Assembly (NCBI RefSeq): GCF_001428895.1 | Contig: NZ_LMJA01000001.1 | Coordinates: 125,150 to 189,149, forward strand | Reading direction: 5' to 3' | Origin: Mycobacterium sp. Root265 | GTDB lineage: Bacteria; Actinomycetota; Actinomycetes; Mycobacteriales; Mycobacteriaceae | Length of the DNA stretch: 64,000 bases | Shown here: positions 21,025 to 26,502 of the stretch, in pieces | Numbering within the stretch: the stretch's first letter is position 1 | Layout: every line of letters begins with the position of its first letter | Made by a program: the position numbers and the translations under genes | Notes under the pieces: model-generated | Databases searched by the model: none | What the model was told of the DNA's origin: nothing | The model's input: the letters and a program-made list of their open reading frames with translations, nothing else

Positions 21025-21780
21025 ATGAGTACCTTGGAATTCGTGTCGACGTCGGCCGGCGGCATCGCCGAAAGCGACGCGCCACTCGTCTCAGCACCCG
21101 CCCTGGTTGCGGCTCTGGGCACCCATCCGGCGCTCACGGTGCCGCTGGTCAGCGGCCGCACACCCGATAGCGACCTCATCTGGGCGCGCCTGGACGAGGC
21201 GGCCCGCTTCTTCGGCCACGACATCCCACCGGCCACCGCACTGCGCGACACCGTGGCGGGCTTCCTCGACGAGGCCACCGTCCGGCACGGCCAGGTAACC
21301 CTGGCAGCGCGGGTGATGGTCGTCGACCTCGACGGGCGGGCCCGCTTCGTGGTGTCGGCGTCGGTGATCGACCCGGTACGGTCCGCGCCGGTGGCGCTGA
21401 CCGTCACCTCGAACCGGGAGGCCGGGCCGGTGCCACACTGGCGTCGGATGGCCGCGCGCACCGCCAGCCGGGCCGAGTCCGACCTCGCCGAACGCGAGCT
21501 GGCTGCCGGCGGTTACGCCGACGAGGTTGGCACCGACGGGGAGCTGGTGCACCGTCCGCGGCTGGGCGCGTTGATCCTGGGCACGGCCGAACGTGCCGTC
21601 GGCATCGGTGCCGACAGACTGGATTTGTTGCGGGCCGCCGGTCTGCTGGACGGCGTGCGGTACTCCGATGAGCCCGTCCCGATGTCCGGCACCACGCACG
21701 CATGGTGGGTGTCACCGCGTTTCGAGACCCATCCCGTCAGCGCCATCGGCGCCCGTCGTCTCGAGGTGGCACCGACATGA
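21025..21780 (+). CDS. Uncharacterised protein of the murL operon, possibly a degenerate class IV aminotransferase fold
   Basis: A 251-residue protein, coupled to murL by an ATGA overlap. I do not recognise it with certainty. The second half resembles the fold-type IV PLP family in layout (AESDLAERELAAGGYADEV, then a TDGELVHRPRLGALI stretch, and near the end WWVSPRFETHPVSAIGAR, where that family has a segment ending in PV and a short conserved tail). The catalytic lysine region is replaced by HWRRM, so a classical aminotransferase activity is unlikely. D-amino-acid transaminase, which makes D-glutamate, belongs to that family, which makes the neighbourhood suggestive. TAGGAT at 21009-21014 could be its -10 box. 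Treat the family call as a weak hypothesis. Confidence 0.7.
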   Translation: MSTLEFVSTSAGGIAESDAPLVSAPALVAALGTHPALTVPLVSGRTPDSDLIWARLDEAARFFGHDIPPATALRDTVAGFLDEATVRHGQVTLAARVMVVDLDGRARFVVSASVIDPVRSAPVALTVTSNREAGPVPHWRRMAARTASRAESDLAERELAAGGYADEVGTDGELVHRPRLGALILGTAERAVGIGADRLDLLRAAGLLDGVRYSDEPVPMSGTTHAWWVSPRFETHPVSAIGARRLEVAPT

Positions 21781-23099
21781 GTGAGTCCTTCCGTCCGGAA
21801 TCCTTCGACGCCTTGGTGATCGACGGCCACGACTGGGTCGACGGCCGGCTCGAACTGCACTACACGCTGCGCGGGCCGGATCCGGTCGGCTTCACCGAGG
21901 TGATCGATTTCGGTGACAGCCTGGCCGGCGCGGCGCCGGACCCGTTGCTGTCCCGGCTGCTGACGCTCACCTGCTCGCTGAGCTACTACAAGGCGGCCGC
22001 CCCGCCCCGGATCGAGATCGCTTTCCCCACACACGATTTCGAGAAACGCTACCTGAACGCGCTCATCGAGGGCGGGCTCGGTGAGTTCGCATACACCAAC
22101 CAGTTGCCCGGTGCGCTGACACCCGAGATCGACGGCCCGGCCGCGACCGACGGGCCTCGACCCGGTGACGACTGGGATCCGGCGGCGACCCCGCTGGTCC
22201 CCGTCGGCGGCGGCAAGGATTCGGTGGTCAGCATCGAGGCGTTCCGGCGGCACGGTGTTGCGCCGATGTTGTTCAGCGTCAACCGGTATGACCCCATCGA
22301 CCGGTGCATCGAGGTCAGCGGCCTGAACAGTGTGCACGTCCGGCGCAGCATCGACCGCCGCCTCATCCAGGCCAACGCCGAGGGCGCCTACAACGGGCAT
22401 GTGCCGGTGACCGCGATCAACAGCGTGATCGGGTTGATCGTTGCCGACGCCAACGGGTTCGGGCCGGTGGTGCTGTCCAATGAGCGGTCCTCCAACGTCG
22501 GCAACGTCGAGTGGCTCGGCCGCGACATCAACCACCAGTGGTCCAAGAGTCTGGCCTACGAGACGCTGCTACGGGACACCCTGGCGCGCCACGGCTTCAA
22601 CCCGGACCGCTACTTCTCGCTGCTGCGCGGGCTGTCGGAATCGCAGATCGCCGACCGGTTCGCCACCAGCCCCGAGTACTTCGGTGTGTTCACCAGTTGT
22701 AACCGGCTGTTCGCGCTCGATCCCAGCCGGCGCGCCAGCTCGTGGTGTGGGCACTGCCCGAAATGCCAGTTCGTCTTCGTGCTGCTGGCGCCGCGACTGG
22801 GCCGGCCCACGCTGGAAAAGATCTTCGGCCGCAACCTGTTCGCCGACACCGGGAACCGCGACGGTATCGCCGACATCCTCGGCGTCGGTGTGCACAAGCC
22901 GTTCGAATGCGTGGGGGAGTACTACGAGGCCGCCGAGTCCATGCTCGCGGTACTCGACGACCCGCAGTGGCAGGGGCTGGAGTTGGTCGACGAATTCTCC
23001 GGGCAGCGTGCGCAATTGGCGGTGGTGGCGGTCAATCCGGACCCCTCACCGGCCGAACACCATGTGCCCGAACGCTATGCGAGCCTGCTCGATGACTGA
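21777..23099 (+). CDS. murL: UDP-MurNAc-L-alanyl-L-glutamate epimerase (MurL)
   Basis: A 440-residue protein. It carries a PP-loop-like nucleotide motif VGGGKDS at 143-149, NERS at 235-238, NHQWSKS at 252-258, and a cysteine cluster WCGHCPKC with C324, C327 and C330. These are features of the MurL family, which inverts the terminal L-glutamate of UDP-MurNAc-L-Ala-L-Glu to D-glutamate (shown in Xanthomonas). The next gene encodes a MurD-type ligase, overlapping by 8 bases, as expected for the MurD2 partner. Together they make the D-glutamate-containing precursor without free D-glutamate from a racemase. The identification rests on motifs and pairing, not on a search. Confidence 0.8.
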   Translation: MSESFRPESFDALVIDGHDWVDGRLELHYTLRGPDPVGFTEVIDFGDSLAGAAPDPLLSRLLTLTCSLSYYKAAAPPRIEIAFPTHDFEKRYLNALIEGGLGEFAYTNQLPGALTPEIDGPAATDGPRPGDDWDPAATPLVPVGGGKDSVVSIEAFRRHGVAPMLFSVNRYDPIDRCIEVSGLNSVHVRRSIDRRLIQANAEGAYNGHVPVTAINSVIGLIVADANGFGPVVLSNERSSNVGNVEWLGRDINHQWSKSLAYETLLRDTLARHGFNPDRYFSLLRGLSESQIADRFATSPEYFGVFTSCNRLFALDPSRRASSWCGHCPKCQFVFVLLAPRLGRPTLEKIFGRNLFADTGNRDGIADILGVGVHKPFECVGEYYEAAESMLAVLDDPQWQGLELVDEFSGQRAQLAVVAVNPDPSPAEHHVPERYASLLDD

Positions 23100-24381
23100 G
23101 CTGGCGGGCCGGGTCGTCGGTATCTGGGGGCTCGGCAAGGAGGGGCTCTCGATGGCCCGCACCGCCGCCGCGCAGGGGGCCGCCCGCATCATCGCGGTCG
23201 ATGATCGCGCCACCACCGACGCCCCCGACCTGCCCAATCTGACGGTCAGTCATGGACCCGACGCCCCCGAACAGTTGCGCGACACCGATATCGTCTTCGT
23301 CAGTCCCGGTGTGCCCTGGCGGCATCCGGTGTTCGCGCAGATGCGTGACGCCGGCCACGCGGTGTCCAACGCCGCCGACTGGTTCATGGCCCGCCACGGC
23401 GCCCATACCGTGGGGATCACCGGCACCAAGGGCAAGAGCACCACCGCAGCCTTCCTCGCGCATCTGCTGGCCGGGCTGGGCGTGCCCGCGGTGGCCGCGG
23501 GCAATATCGGCACTCCGCTGTCGGATCTGGACCCGGCCGGGGACGAATGGGTGGTGGCCGAATTGTCGAGTCAGCAGTGCGCGTTGTTGCACACGCCGCC
23601 CGCAGTGGCGGTGATCACCAACCTGTTCCAGGATCACCTCGACTTCCACGGCGACATCGCGTCCTACTACGAGGCCAAATCCCACGTGTTCGGTGCCGCA
23701 ACGCGCTGCCTCGTCACGACACCCGGTGTCGTCGAATCGCTTCGGCGGATTGGGATCTCGGAGTTTCCCCCGCTGCGCGAACTGGACCCGGCCACGGTCA
23801 GAACACCGGCGGGGGAGTCGGTGCTGTCCTACGCGCACAACACCGTCAATGCCGCACTGGCGGCGCTGGCGGCCGAGCAGGTGCTGGGGCGCGCGGTGAC
23901 CGCGGCCGAGGTGGATGCCGCGGCCGCCTCGTTCAGCGGTCTGCCACATCGGCTGCAGACCGTGCGGCGCACCGGGGGTATCCGCTGGATCGACGACACG
24001 CTGGCGACCACCGGGGAGGCCGTGGTGGCCGCGCTGACCGCCATGCGATCCGATGAGGAGATCGCACTGATCGTGGGCGGCATGGACCGGGCACTGGACT
24101 ACCGGCAACTCGACACCTACCTGTGCAGCGGGCAGCGCCGGGTCACCCTCATCCAGGGTCCGACCAATGGCGCCCGCATCGGCACCGGCTTCGCCGCCGC
24201 GCACCCCGACCGCACCCATCCGGTGGACAGCCTGCAGGACGCCGTCCGGGTGGCCGCAGCGGTCCCCGGCGTCGACGTGGTGCTGCTGTCCCCGGGGGCG
24301 GCAAGTTATGACCTTTTCCGGAACTTCGAAGAAAAAGGCGCCGTGTACTGCGGGTATATCGACGTCGTAGACACGCTCTAA
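23092..24381 (+). CDS. murD2: UDP-N-acetylmuramoyl-L-alanine--L-glutamate ligase (MurD2)
   Basis: A 429-residue Mur ligase. The N-terminal UDP-binding domain holds GIWGLGKEGLS at 10-20, the central ATP-binding domain has GITGTKGKST at 108-117 and NLFQDHLDFHG, and the C-terminal domain ends with LLSPGAASYDLF. This is a MurD-like architecture. It is slightly shorter than typical MurD and sits directly behind murL, the arrangement of the MurD2 subfamily that adds L-glutamate instead of D-glutamate. The ordinary murD should lie in the dcw cluster elsewhere. ATG 23092 overlaps the murL stop by 8 bases. Confidence 0.82.
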   Translation: MTELAGRVVGIWGLGKEGLSMARTAAAQGAARIIAVDDRATTDAPDLPNLTVSHGPDAPEQLRDTDIVFVSPGVPWRHPVFAQMRDAGHAVSNAADWFMARHGAHTVGITGTKGKSTTAAFLAHLLAGLGVPAVAAGNIGTPLSDLDPAGDEWVVAELSSQQCALLHTPPAVAVITNLFQDHLDFHGDIASYYEAKSHVFGAATRCLVTTPGVVESLRRIGISEFPPLRELDPATVRTPAGESVLSYAHNTVNAALAALAAEQVLGRAVTAAEVDAAAASFSGLPHRLQTVRRTGGIRWIDDTLATTGEAVVAALTAMRSDEEIALIVGGMDRALDYRQLDTYLCSGQRRVTLIQGPTNGARIGTGFAAAHPDRTHPVDSLQDAVRVAAAVPGVDVVLLSPGAASYDLFRNFEEKGAVYCGYIDVVDTL

Positions 24382-24390: not shown

Positions 24391-26502
24391 GTGCCCGATC
24401 CAGCGACCTACCGGCCCGCGCCGGGTTCGATTCCCGTCGAACCCGGTGTCTACCGGTTCCGTGATCCGCACGGCCGGGTGATCTACGTCGGCAAGGCCAA
24501 GAGCCTGCGCAGCCGCCTCAACTCCTATTTCGCCGACATCTCCGGCCTGGCGCCGCGGACCCGGCAGATGGTGATGACGGCGGGCAGCGTCGAGTGGACC
24601 GTGGTGTCCACCGAGGTCGAGGCCCTGCAGCTGGAATACAACTGGATCAAGGAGTTCGACCCGCGGTTCAACATCCGGTACCGCGACGACAAGTCCTACC
24701 CGGTGCTGGCGGTGACGCTGAACGAGGAATACCCGCGGCTGTTCGTCTATCGCGGGCCGCGGCGCAAAGGGGTGCGCTACTTCGGGCCCTACTCGCATGC
24801 GTGGGCCATCCGGGAGACCCTGGATCTGCTGACCCGGGTGTTCCCGGCGCGCACCTGCTCGGCCGGAGTCTTCAAGCGGCACAAGCAGATCGATCGGCCG
24901 TGCCTGCTCGGGTACATCGACAAGTGCTCGGCGCCCTGTATCGGACGGGTCAGTGCCGAACAGCACCGGCAGATCGTGCTGGACTTCTGCGACTTCCTGG
25001 CGGGCAAGACCGACCGGCTGGTCCGCGACATGGAGCGGCAGATGAACGCCGCCGCCGAGGAACTCGACTTCGAGCGGGCGGCCCGGCTGCGCGACGACAT
25101 CGGCGCGCTCAAACGTGCCCTGGAGAAGCAGACCGTGGTGTTCGGTGACGGCACCGATGCCGATGTGGTGGCCTTCGCCGACGACGACCTGGAGGCGGCG
25201 GTCCAGGTGTTCCACGTGCGCGGCGGGCGGGTACGCGGGCAGCGCGGCTGGGTGGTCGAAAAGACAGGAGAACCGGGGGATTCGGGCGAGGCGCGCCTGG
25301 TGGAGCAGTTCCTCACCCAGTTCTACGGCGATCAGGCCGAACTCGGGGCCGTCGGCGGTCCACAGGACGAGGCCACCAACCCGGTGCCCAAGCAGGTCCT
25401 GGTGCCGGTGCTTCCGGAGAACGCCGAGGAACTCACCGACTGGCTGAGCGGACTGCGGGGATCGCGGGTGGACCTGCGGGTGCCGGTACGCGGTGACAAG
25501 CGGACGCTGGCCGAGACGGTGCAGCGAAATGCCCAGGATGCGCTGGCGCAGCACAAACTCAAGCGGGCCGGTGACTTCAACGCCAGATCCGAAGCGCTGC
25601 AGAGCATCCAGACAACGCTCGAGCTCGCCGATGCGCCGCTCCGGATCGAGTGTGTCGACATCAGCCACGTTCAGGGCACCGATGTGGTGGCCTCGCTGGT
25701 GGTCTTCGAGGACGGTCTGCCGCGGAAATCGGACTACCGGCACTACGCCATCCGGGAGGCCGCCGGGGAAGGCCGGTCCGATGATGTGGCGTCCATCGCC
25801 GAGGTCACCCGGCGCCGGTTCGCCCGGCACGTCGCCGATGCCGAACAGCCGATGGTGGCCGAAGGCAAATCACGCCGGTTCGCCTACCCACCCAACCTCT
25901 ACGTCGTCGACGGCGGCGCACCGCAGGTGAACGCCGCGGCCGCGGTGCTGCGCGACCTCGGGGTCACCGATGTCGCGGTGATCGGATTGGCCAAACGTCT
26001 GGAAGAGGTCTGGGTGCCCGGCCCGTCGGCGGACCCGGTGATCTTCCCGCGCACCAGCGAGGGGCTCTACCTGTTGCAGCGCATCCGTGACGAGGCTCAC
26101 CGCTTCGCCATCACGTTCCACCGCAGCAAGCGCTCCAAGCGCATGACCGCCTCGGCGCTGGATTCGGTGCGAGGATTGGGGGAGCACCGGCGCAAGGCGC
26201 TGGTGACGCACTTCGGTTCGGTATCGCGTTTGCGCGCAGCCAGCGTCGAGGAGATCACCACGGTGCCCGGAATCGGCGTCGCGACGGCGAAGGCGGTGCT
26301 GGAAGCGTTGGGGGTGGCGACGCCCGGCCCGGCGGGTGATGAGATGGACACGCCCATCGATTCCGACACGCCCGAGCCGCTTTTGCACAATGATCGACCC
26401 GAAGACGATCGACCCCAACACGGTCCACCCGAAGACGAACAGACCGAACGACAAGCCGACCAGAACTCAGAACAGATATCGGAGTGGCAGACCAGCGAAT
26501 GA
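24391..26502 (+). CDS. uvrC: Excinuclease ABC subunit C
   Basis: A 703-residue nuclease that makes both incisions in nucleotide excision repair. The GIY-YIG domain (GVYRF and [14 protein letters not shown], residues 19-50) performs the 3' cut, a UVR domain around 210-245 contacts UvrB, and the RNase H-like domain ([29 protein letters not shown]) performs the 5' cut. A helix-hairpin-helix pair follows. After that comes an acidic, low-complexity tail of about 55 residues rich in Asp, Glu, Pro and Gln, which I take as an extension beyond the family core. GTG 24391 matches a leaderless promoter. The stop overlaps the rapZ start. Confidence 0.95.

What the first reader, a model, noticed from the sequence alone, without database searches (positions are those of the whole stretch)
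21025..24381. MurL-MurD2 operon in a mycobacterium: second route to D-glutamate in peptidoglycan
MurD2 adds L-glutamate to UDP-MurNAc-L-Ala, and MurL turns it to D-glutamate. This replaces the racemase route in Xanthomonas. Mycobacteria are known to use MurI and MurD. Here a PP-loop/Cys-cluster protein with MurL motifs is coupled to a Mur ligase and an unknown third gene, so a parallel or conditional precursor pathway may exist. It could affect sensitivity to racemase inhibitors.
Basis: partly seen in the sequence, partly recalled or inferred. Interest (0 to 1): 0.8.

Follow-up and report, generated by a model that had tools for sequence, protein, structure and literature searches.

The report
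Mycobacteria with a replaced D-glutamate pathway
About one in eight of the mycobacterial species sampled appear to have lost the two standard genes that put D-glutamate into the cell wall and to use a different gene pair instead, accompanied by a third gene that looks like a disabled enzyme and whose role is unknown.

The parts
21025..21780 (+). gene1: 251-aa fold-type-IV (Rv0812/PabC/DAAT-like) protein lacking the catalytic lysine; first gene of the operon
21777..23099 (+). [quoted passage not shown] GGGKDS PP-loop-like motif (aa 144-149) and Cys cluster C308/C324/C327/C330 plus C378
   Evidence: NF041275 E 3.6e-96; motifs invariant in 38 MurLs including Micromonospora sp. ATCC 39149
23092..24381 (+). 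[quoted passage not shown] L304 and R333 at the E. coli K319 and K348 positions
   Evidence: TIGR01087 268.8 bits; only over-cut-off MurD of the genome; residues
20503..20979 (-). GNAT acetyltransferase, conserved left flank of the operon
   Evidence: same neighbour in the 45 whole MurL-positive loci; directly next to uvrC in some MurL-negative genomes
24391..26502 (+). uvrC, conserved right flank, followed by rapZ, yvcK, whiA

Best explanation
In this mycobacterium and its clade the classical MurI-MurD route to D-glutamate in the peptidoglycan stem has been replaced by MurD2-MurL. MurD2 adds L-Glu to UDP-MurNAc(or -MurNGlyc)-L-Ala; [quoted passage not shown] murI and murD were lost from their own loci. 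The first gene of the operon, a relative of the Rv0812 (ADCL/DAAT) family, has lost the catalytic lysine and most likely acts without PLP transamination, as a partner or regulatory subunit. Shown here: gene content, gene loss, synteny, predicted fold and missing lysine. Inferred: L-Glu specificity, the chemistry, and the role of gene1.
For: No TIGR00067 MurI match in G000; MurI over cut-off in 343 of 397 genomes of the genus but in 0 of the 47 with MurL. In all 47 the only MurD over cut-off is MurD2 at the murL locus, 241-272 bits; the next hits listed are at most 123 bits (MurC in G000). Of 10 MurL-negative controls 9 carry canonical MurD at 404-457 bits and 1 has it split into 301.6+93.1. 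mraY-ftsW gap 152-288 bp in 20 of 21 and 982 bp in 1 of 21 MurL-positive genomes, none with murD there, against 1465-1668 bp with murD in 10 of 10 negatives. No murI found beside Rv1339 in 14 of 14 MurL-positive genomes. The one MurL-negative genome of high completeness without any MurI match, G366, has murD2 at a contig end beside uvrC. Micromonospora sp. ATCC 39149 (L155), a strain described as using the alternative pathway (PMC8788868), has homologs of both enzymes, and the window MurD2 shares L304 and R333 with it.
Against: No enzyme assay. MurD2 has Asp at the E. coli D182 position in 61 of 61 mycobacterial loci, where 54 of 57 non-Gordonia others have Glu; in X. oryzae MurD2 the Glu-to-Asp change altered stereospecificity (PMC8788868). 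An Rv0812 (DAAT/ADCL) ortholog with its lysine is still present in G000, so some free D-Glu is not excluded. Five of the 47 MurL-positive genomes have a sub-cut-off MurI-like match, 66-109 bits. Outside the genus MurL and MurI can coexist: Gordonia alkaliphila (160 bits, over cut-off), and Parafrankia EUN1f has 141 bits, just under it. The correlation may rest on one evolutionary swap, so 47 genomes are not 47 independent tests. MurL scores 322 bits, under the 700-bit Xanthomonadales cut-off.
Confidence: 0.86

Rival explanations
1. D-Glu is still made as the free amino acid by a D-amino-acid transaminase (Rv0812 ortholog or another class IV enzyme); 'MurD2' is an ordinary D-Glu ligase and MurL does something else.
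For: Rv0812 of M. tuberculosis is a bifunctional ADCL/DAAT that makes D-Glu (PMC8105722, passages); an ortholog with the lysine is in G000; D181 of MurD2 is canonical. By match range and score a further class IV transaminase sits in 8 of 9 MurL-positive genomes examined, G157 lacking it; only the G000 copy was looked at more closely.
Against: The Rv0812-type gene is also in the six MurL-negative genomes examined, all of which keep MurI over cut-off, so it does not explain the loss of MurI. MurL and MurD2 are kept together in every MurL-positive mycobacterial genome while canonical MurD, not only MurI, is gone. L304 and R333 are the MurD2 state.
Confidence: 0.08
2. Parallel or conditional second pathway beside MurI-MurD.
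For: Elsewhere both can coexist: Gordonia alkaliphila (G397) has MurL and a MurI over cut-off (160 bits).
Against: No over-cut-off MurI and no canonical MurD in 47 of 47 MurL-positive mycobacteria; sites empty where looked at.
Confidence: 0.03
3. gene1 is not a partner of MurL-MurD2 but an independent small-molecule-binding protein that hitchhikes in the operon.
For: It evolves faster than its neighbour (31-79% identity to the window in A1, against 66-94% for MurL in A2) and was not found at the 65 other MurL loci, so the chemistry can run without it elsewhere.
Against: Its end overlaps the murL start in 45 of 45 loci by my start calls; present at every MurL locus of the clade fetched and in 0 of 55 MurL-negative mycobacteria.
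Confidence: 0.2

Closest known systems
MurD2-MurL pathway of Xanthomonas oryzae (XOO_1320/XOO_1319) and of Micromonospora sp. and Salinispora tropica (PMC8788868)
   Same: MurL and MurD-like ligase homologs; no MurI over cut-off; L304 and R333 in MurD2 (Micromonospora ATCC 39149 compared here; Xanthomonas not compared by sequence)
   Different: The mycobacterial operon begins with gene1, not found at 65 other MurL loci; murD2 follows murL, whereas at the Micromonosporaceae loci where it was seen it is divergent from murL; Asp instead of Glu at the E. coli D182 position and Ala instead of Pro at the A414 position; the genus is not in the distribution list of PMC8788868
Gordonia alkaliphila / G. 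malaquae MurL-MurD2 (L093, L097)
   Same: Closest MurL outside the clade (52-53% identity; joined at SH-aLRT 99 in the MurL tree); same D181/L304/R333 state
   Different: No gene1 and none of the flanking genes; G. alkaliphila still has a MurI over cut-off
Rv0812 (bifunctional aminodeoxychorismate lyase / D-amino acid transaminase) and CpuTA1
   Same: gene1 fold and near full-length alignment
   Different: No lysine at the catalytic position in 44 of 44 gene1 proteins; 16-19% identity

Membership tests
MurL (broad family) | Significant match to the MurL model over most of its length | tested here: met
   NF041275 E 3.6e-96, model positions 61-442 of 447; 38 of 38 members of A4 match
MurL (broad family) | Adjacent to a MurD2-type ligase in a genome without MurI | tested here: met
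[quoted passage not shown]
   needs an enzyme assay
NF041275 equivalog (Xanthomonadales MurL) | 700-bit equivalog cut-off | tested here: not met
   322 bits; the Micromonospora ATCC 39149 MurL also falls below, 389.6 bits on a 389-aa stretch, so this cut-off defines the Xanthomonadales subset
MurD2 | MurD-like ligase paired with MurL | tested here: met
MurD2 | Known stereo-determinants: Arg at E. coli K348, change at K319, Glu at D182 | tested here: inconclusive
   R333 and L304 present, D181 (Asp) instead of Glu: two of three markers. Gordonia (2 of 2) and 3 of 57 other loci share the Asp
MurD2 | Uses L-Glu | not testable with these tools
   needs an assay
Classical MurI-MurD route | MurI (TIGR00067) and canonical MurD in the genome | tested here: not met
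Class IV PLP aminotransferases / ADCL (for gene1) | Fold type IV | tested here: met
Class IV PLP aminotransferases / ADCL (for gene1) | Catalytic Schiff-base lysine | tested here: not met
   aligned position 145: R 41, D 3, K 0 of 44; placement by the alignments
PP-loop ATPases (for MurL) | SGGxDS-type loop with profile similarity | tested here: inconclusive

The most novel reading that the evidence does not exclude
A lysine-less relative of the Rv0812 transaminase has been recruited as a dedicated third component of the mycobacterial MurL-MurD2 pathway. [quoted passage not shown] This would be a pseudoenzyme subunit unknown in any MurL system, in a clade that has given up both murI and murD.
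Probability: 0.4. Interest if true: 0.78.

Novelty: new variant of a known kind. Interest (0 to 1): 0.68.

Why it matters
MurI supplies D-Glu in most of the genus (343 of 397 genomes) and is studied as a drug target there (title and abstract start of PMC5038272, listing). If the reading is right, 47 of 397 species genomes sampled lack that target and canonical MurD, and the genus holds a natural swap of an essential pathway. Comparing sister species with and without the swap would show how a cell changes the source of an essential D-amino acid. The lysine-less Rv0812 relative in the operon offers a concrete, testable new component.

Tried and rejected
Parallel pathway: rejected for this clade. 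Missing murI as an assembly gap: rejected, since eight of the MurL-positive genomes are single-contig and the rhomboid-Rv1339 neighbourhood is kept in 13 of 14 looked at (in L200 the rhomboid was not detected). PF01177 proteins of G000 as hidden MurI: none matches TIGR00067; NCBIfam gave only a weak or no name for two, and EutA below its cut-off for the third; their activity is not tested. Sub-cut-off MurI-like proteins in 5 MurL-positive genomes (66-109 bits; G070, G252, G291, G296, G331) resemble second copies seen in MurL-negative G006 and G021, so they look like paralogs; not followed further. MurL-negative genomes that do not fit: two have only sub-cut-off MurI matches (7 sub-cut-off in all, 5 of them MurL-positive; by E-value these two are G253, 97% complete, and G312, 85%), and five have no match: G003, G260, G275, G303 (55-80% complete) and G366 (98%, explained). 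G275 has an empty operon site as well, so incompleteness is only assumed for it. Single origin of the swap: the ribA2-whiA tree joins all MurL-positives used (support 0.91; 82 of 85 rows, L062, L074 and L075 dropped as incomplete), but these genes flank the locus; the dcw tree splits them into two groups without rejecting one (p-AU 0.304, 31 genomes). Not settled. Promoter scan: none found, one terminator-like site, no more than in shuffles. MurL fold: not tested. Two of five canonical MurD translations came out in a wrong frame and were not used.

Full report
WHAT IS THERE. The window lies in a genome of 6.67 Mb, 30 contigs, 100% complete, mycobacterial by its relatives. At 21025-24381 three genes overlap on the + strand: gene1 (251 aa), murL (440 aa) and murD2 (429 aa), between a GNAT gene on the other strand and uvrC-rapZ-yvcK-whiA. 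Protein 2 matches the MurL model NF041275 (E 3.6e-96, 322 bits; the 700-bit cut-off belongs to a Xanthomonadales model) and protein 3 the MurD model over its cut-off.

THE CLASSICAL ROUTE IS GONE. TIGR00067 (MurI) finds nothing in the own genome. TIGR01087 (MurD) finds only MurD2 over cut-off; the next hit is MurC. In the dcw cluster (L011) murE, murF and mraY are followed directly by ftsW, murG and murC; murD is missing. Genus-wide, 47 of 397 genomes have a MurL match (42 of the 362 that are at least 90% complete and at most 5% contaminated). MurI over the cut-off is in 343 of 397 and in 0 of the 47 MurL-positive genomes, against 10 of 10 MurL-negative controls. At E <= 0.001, 350 of 397 match, leaving 47 without: 42 MurL-positives and five MurL-negatives (G003, G260, G275, G303, G366). 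Four of those five are 55-80% complete. The fifth, G366 (98%), has murD2 (66% identity) at a contig end beside uvrC, so it seems to be of the MurL type with a broken assembly. Two more MurL-negative genomes have only sub-cut-off MurI matches (by E-value G253, 97% complete, and G312, 85%); I did not look into them. For MurD, all 47 MurL-positive genomes have their one over-cut-off hit at the murL locus (241-272 bits; the next hits listed reach at most 123), while 9 of 10 controls have canonical MurD at 404-457 bits and the tenth has it split. The mraY-ftsW gap is 152-288 bp in 20 of 21 MurL-positive clusters (982 bp in one) and 1465-1668 bp with murD inside in 10 of 10 controls. At the murI site, looked at in 14 of the 47, no murI is found beside the Rv1339 homolog in any; the rhomboid on the other side is kept in 13 and was not detected in one.

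THE SAME OPERON THROUGHOUT THE CLADE. All three genes follow GNAT in 45 of 45 whole loci from other MurL-positive genomes; uvrC follows in 44 (in L062 the contig ends first; in L049, L069 and L070 about 2 kb lies before uvrC); G008 has them in pieces on two contigs. By my start calls gene1 and murL overlap in 45 of 45 and murD2 begins within 23 bp of the murL stop. In 39 MurL-negative genomes fetched at this locus no gene1, murL or murD2 was found.

ORIGIN. The 13 mycobacterial MurLs of A4 form one group (support 98) joined to the two Gordonia MurLs (99). The species tree of flanking genes puts all MurL-positives used in one clade (0.91); the dcw tree needs two changes but does not reject one. 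One acquisition at the uvrC locus, with loss of murI and murD, is the simplest account, not proven. Outside the genus, of 16 other MurL genomes searched (including L137, a MAG labelled Mycobacterium), one has MurI over cut-off (Gordonia alkaliphila, 160 bits) and one just under it (Parafrankia EUN1f, 141 bits); the three named mycobacteria in the same search have none.

MURD2. Aligned to E. coli MurD, the window protein has D181, L304, R333, A404 and Y406 at E. coli positions 182, 319, 348, 414 and 416. Of 120 MurD2 loci, L304 is shared by 119 and R333 by 120; Asp at 181 is found in 61 of 61 mycobacterial loci (some genomes are counted twice, under a G handle and a GTDB record) and 2 of 2 Gordonia, while 54 of 57 others have Glu, including Micromonospora sp. 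ATCC 39149. In the review by Ogasawara and Dairi (PMC8788868, parts 1 and 2 of 3 read), E197D and R358K of X. oryzae MurD2 each changed stereospecificity, the double mutant switched it, and K319T let E. coli MurD take L-Glu. Mycobacterial MurD2 thus carries two of three markers. This is the main unresolved point against a simple L-Glu reading.

MECHANISM, STEP BY STEP. L-Glu ligation by MurD2 and ATP-dependent inversion by MurL with AMP release are published for X. oryzae, and confirmation of the Micromonospora and Salinispora orthologs in vitro is stated in the same review; for the mycobacterial pair they are inferred from homology and from the absence of MurI. MurL is described there as lacking known domains. 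Here GGGKDS and C308, C324, C327, C330 and C378 are invariant in 38 MurLs, and the MurL profile's best PDB hits are PP-loop sulfurtransferases at that motif, at non-significant E (0.018), which fits AMP formation.

LITERATURE. Searches for MurL with Mycobacterium or MurD2 (11 papers, listing only), glutamate racemase with M. neoaurum (none), with Mycolicibacterium (2 papers, listing only) or with murI, lack and nontuberculous (1, listing), and 'glycopeptidyl-glutamate epimerase' (3 papers) showed no title or abstract start that reports MurL or loss of MurI in mycobacteria. The library holds only open-licence papers. The distribution given in PMC8788868 does not include mycobacteria. I did not read the original 2017 report. 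PMC5808125 and PMC8105722 were seen as passages.

VERDICT. A natural replacement, not a back-up: a new variant of a known pathway, with a new candidate component.

Noticed in passing
L093 / G397 (Gordonia alkaliphila): MurL-MurD2 coexists with a MurI over cut-off (160 bits), while G. malaquae (G398) with MurL has no match: a possible intermediate stage of the swap.
   Followed up: partly
L188, L185 and L190 against L171-L174, L176, L180: The Rv0812-type proteins of nine MurL-positive genomes score 119.7-141.8 bits on PF01063, those of six MurL-negative ones 140.7-150.9; in the three MurL-positive ones aligned, the stretch around the lysine differs. DAAT activity may be relaxed in this clade.
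   Followed up: no
L181 (G000 contig 28, about 237218-237895): An extra class IV transaminase, nearest to BCAT and D-amino-acid transaminase models but below their cut-offs; by match range a like gene is in 8 of 9 MurL-positive genomes examined.
   Followed up: partly
L137 (MAG Mycobacterium sp. RYN_182): A MurL only 42% identical to the window's, with murD2 but none of the mycobacterial flanking genes; in the MurL tree it falls outside the mycobacterial group; perhaps a misassigned MAG.
   Followed up: partly
L263 (G157 dcw cluster): The only one of 21 MurL-positive clusters with a larger mraY-ftsW gap (982 bp); content not examined.
   Followed up: no
L093-L158: At the Micromonosporaceae loci where murD2 was seen it is divergent from murL, while in mycobacteria, Gordonia, Nocardioides and Microbacterium it follows murL.
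   Followed up: no
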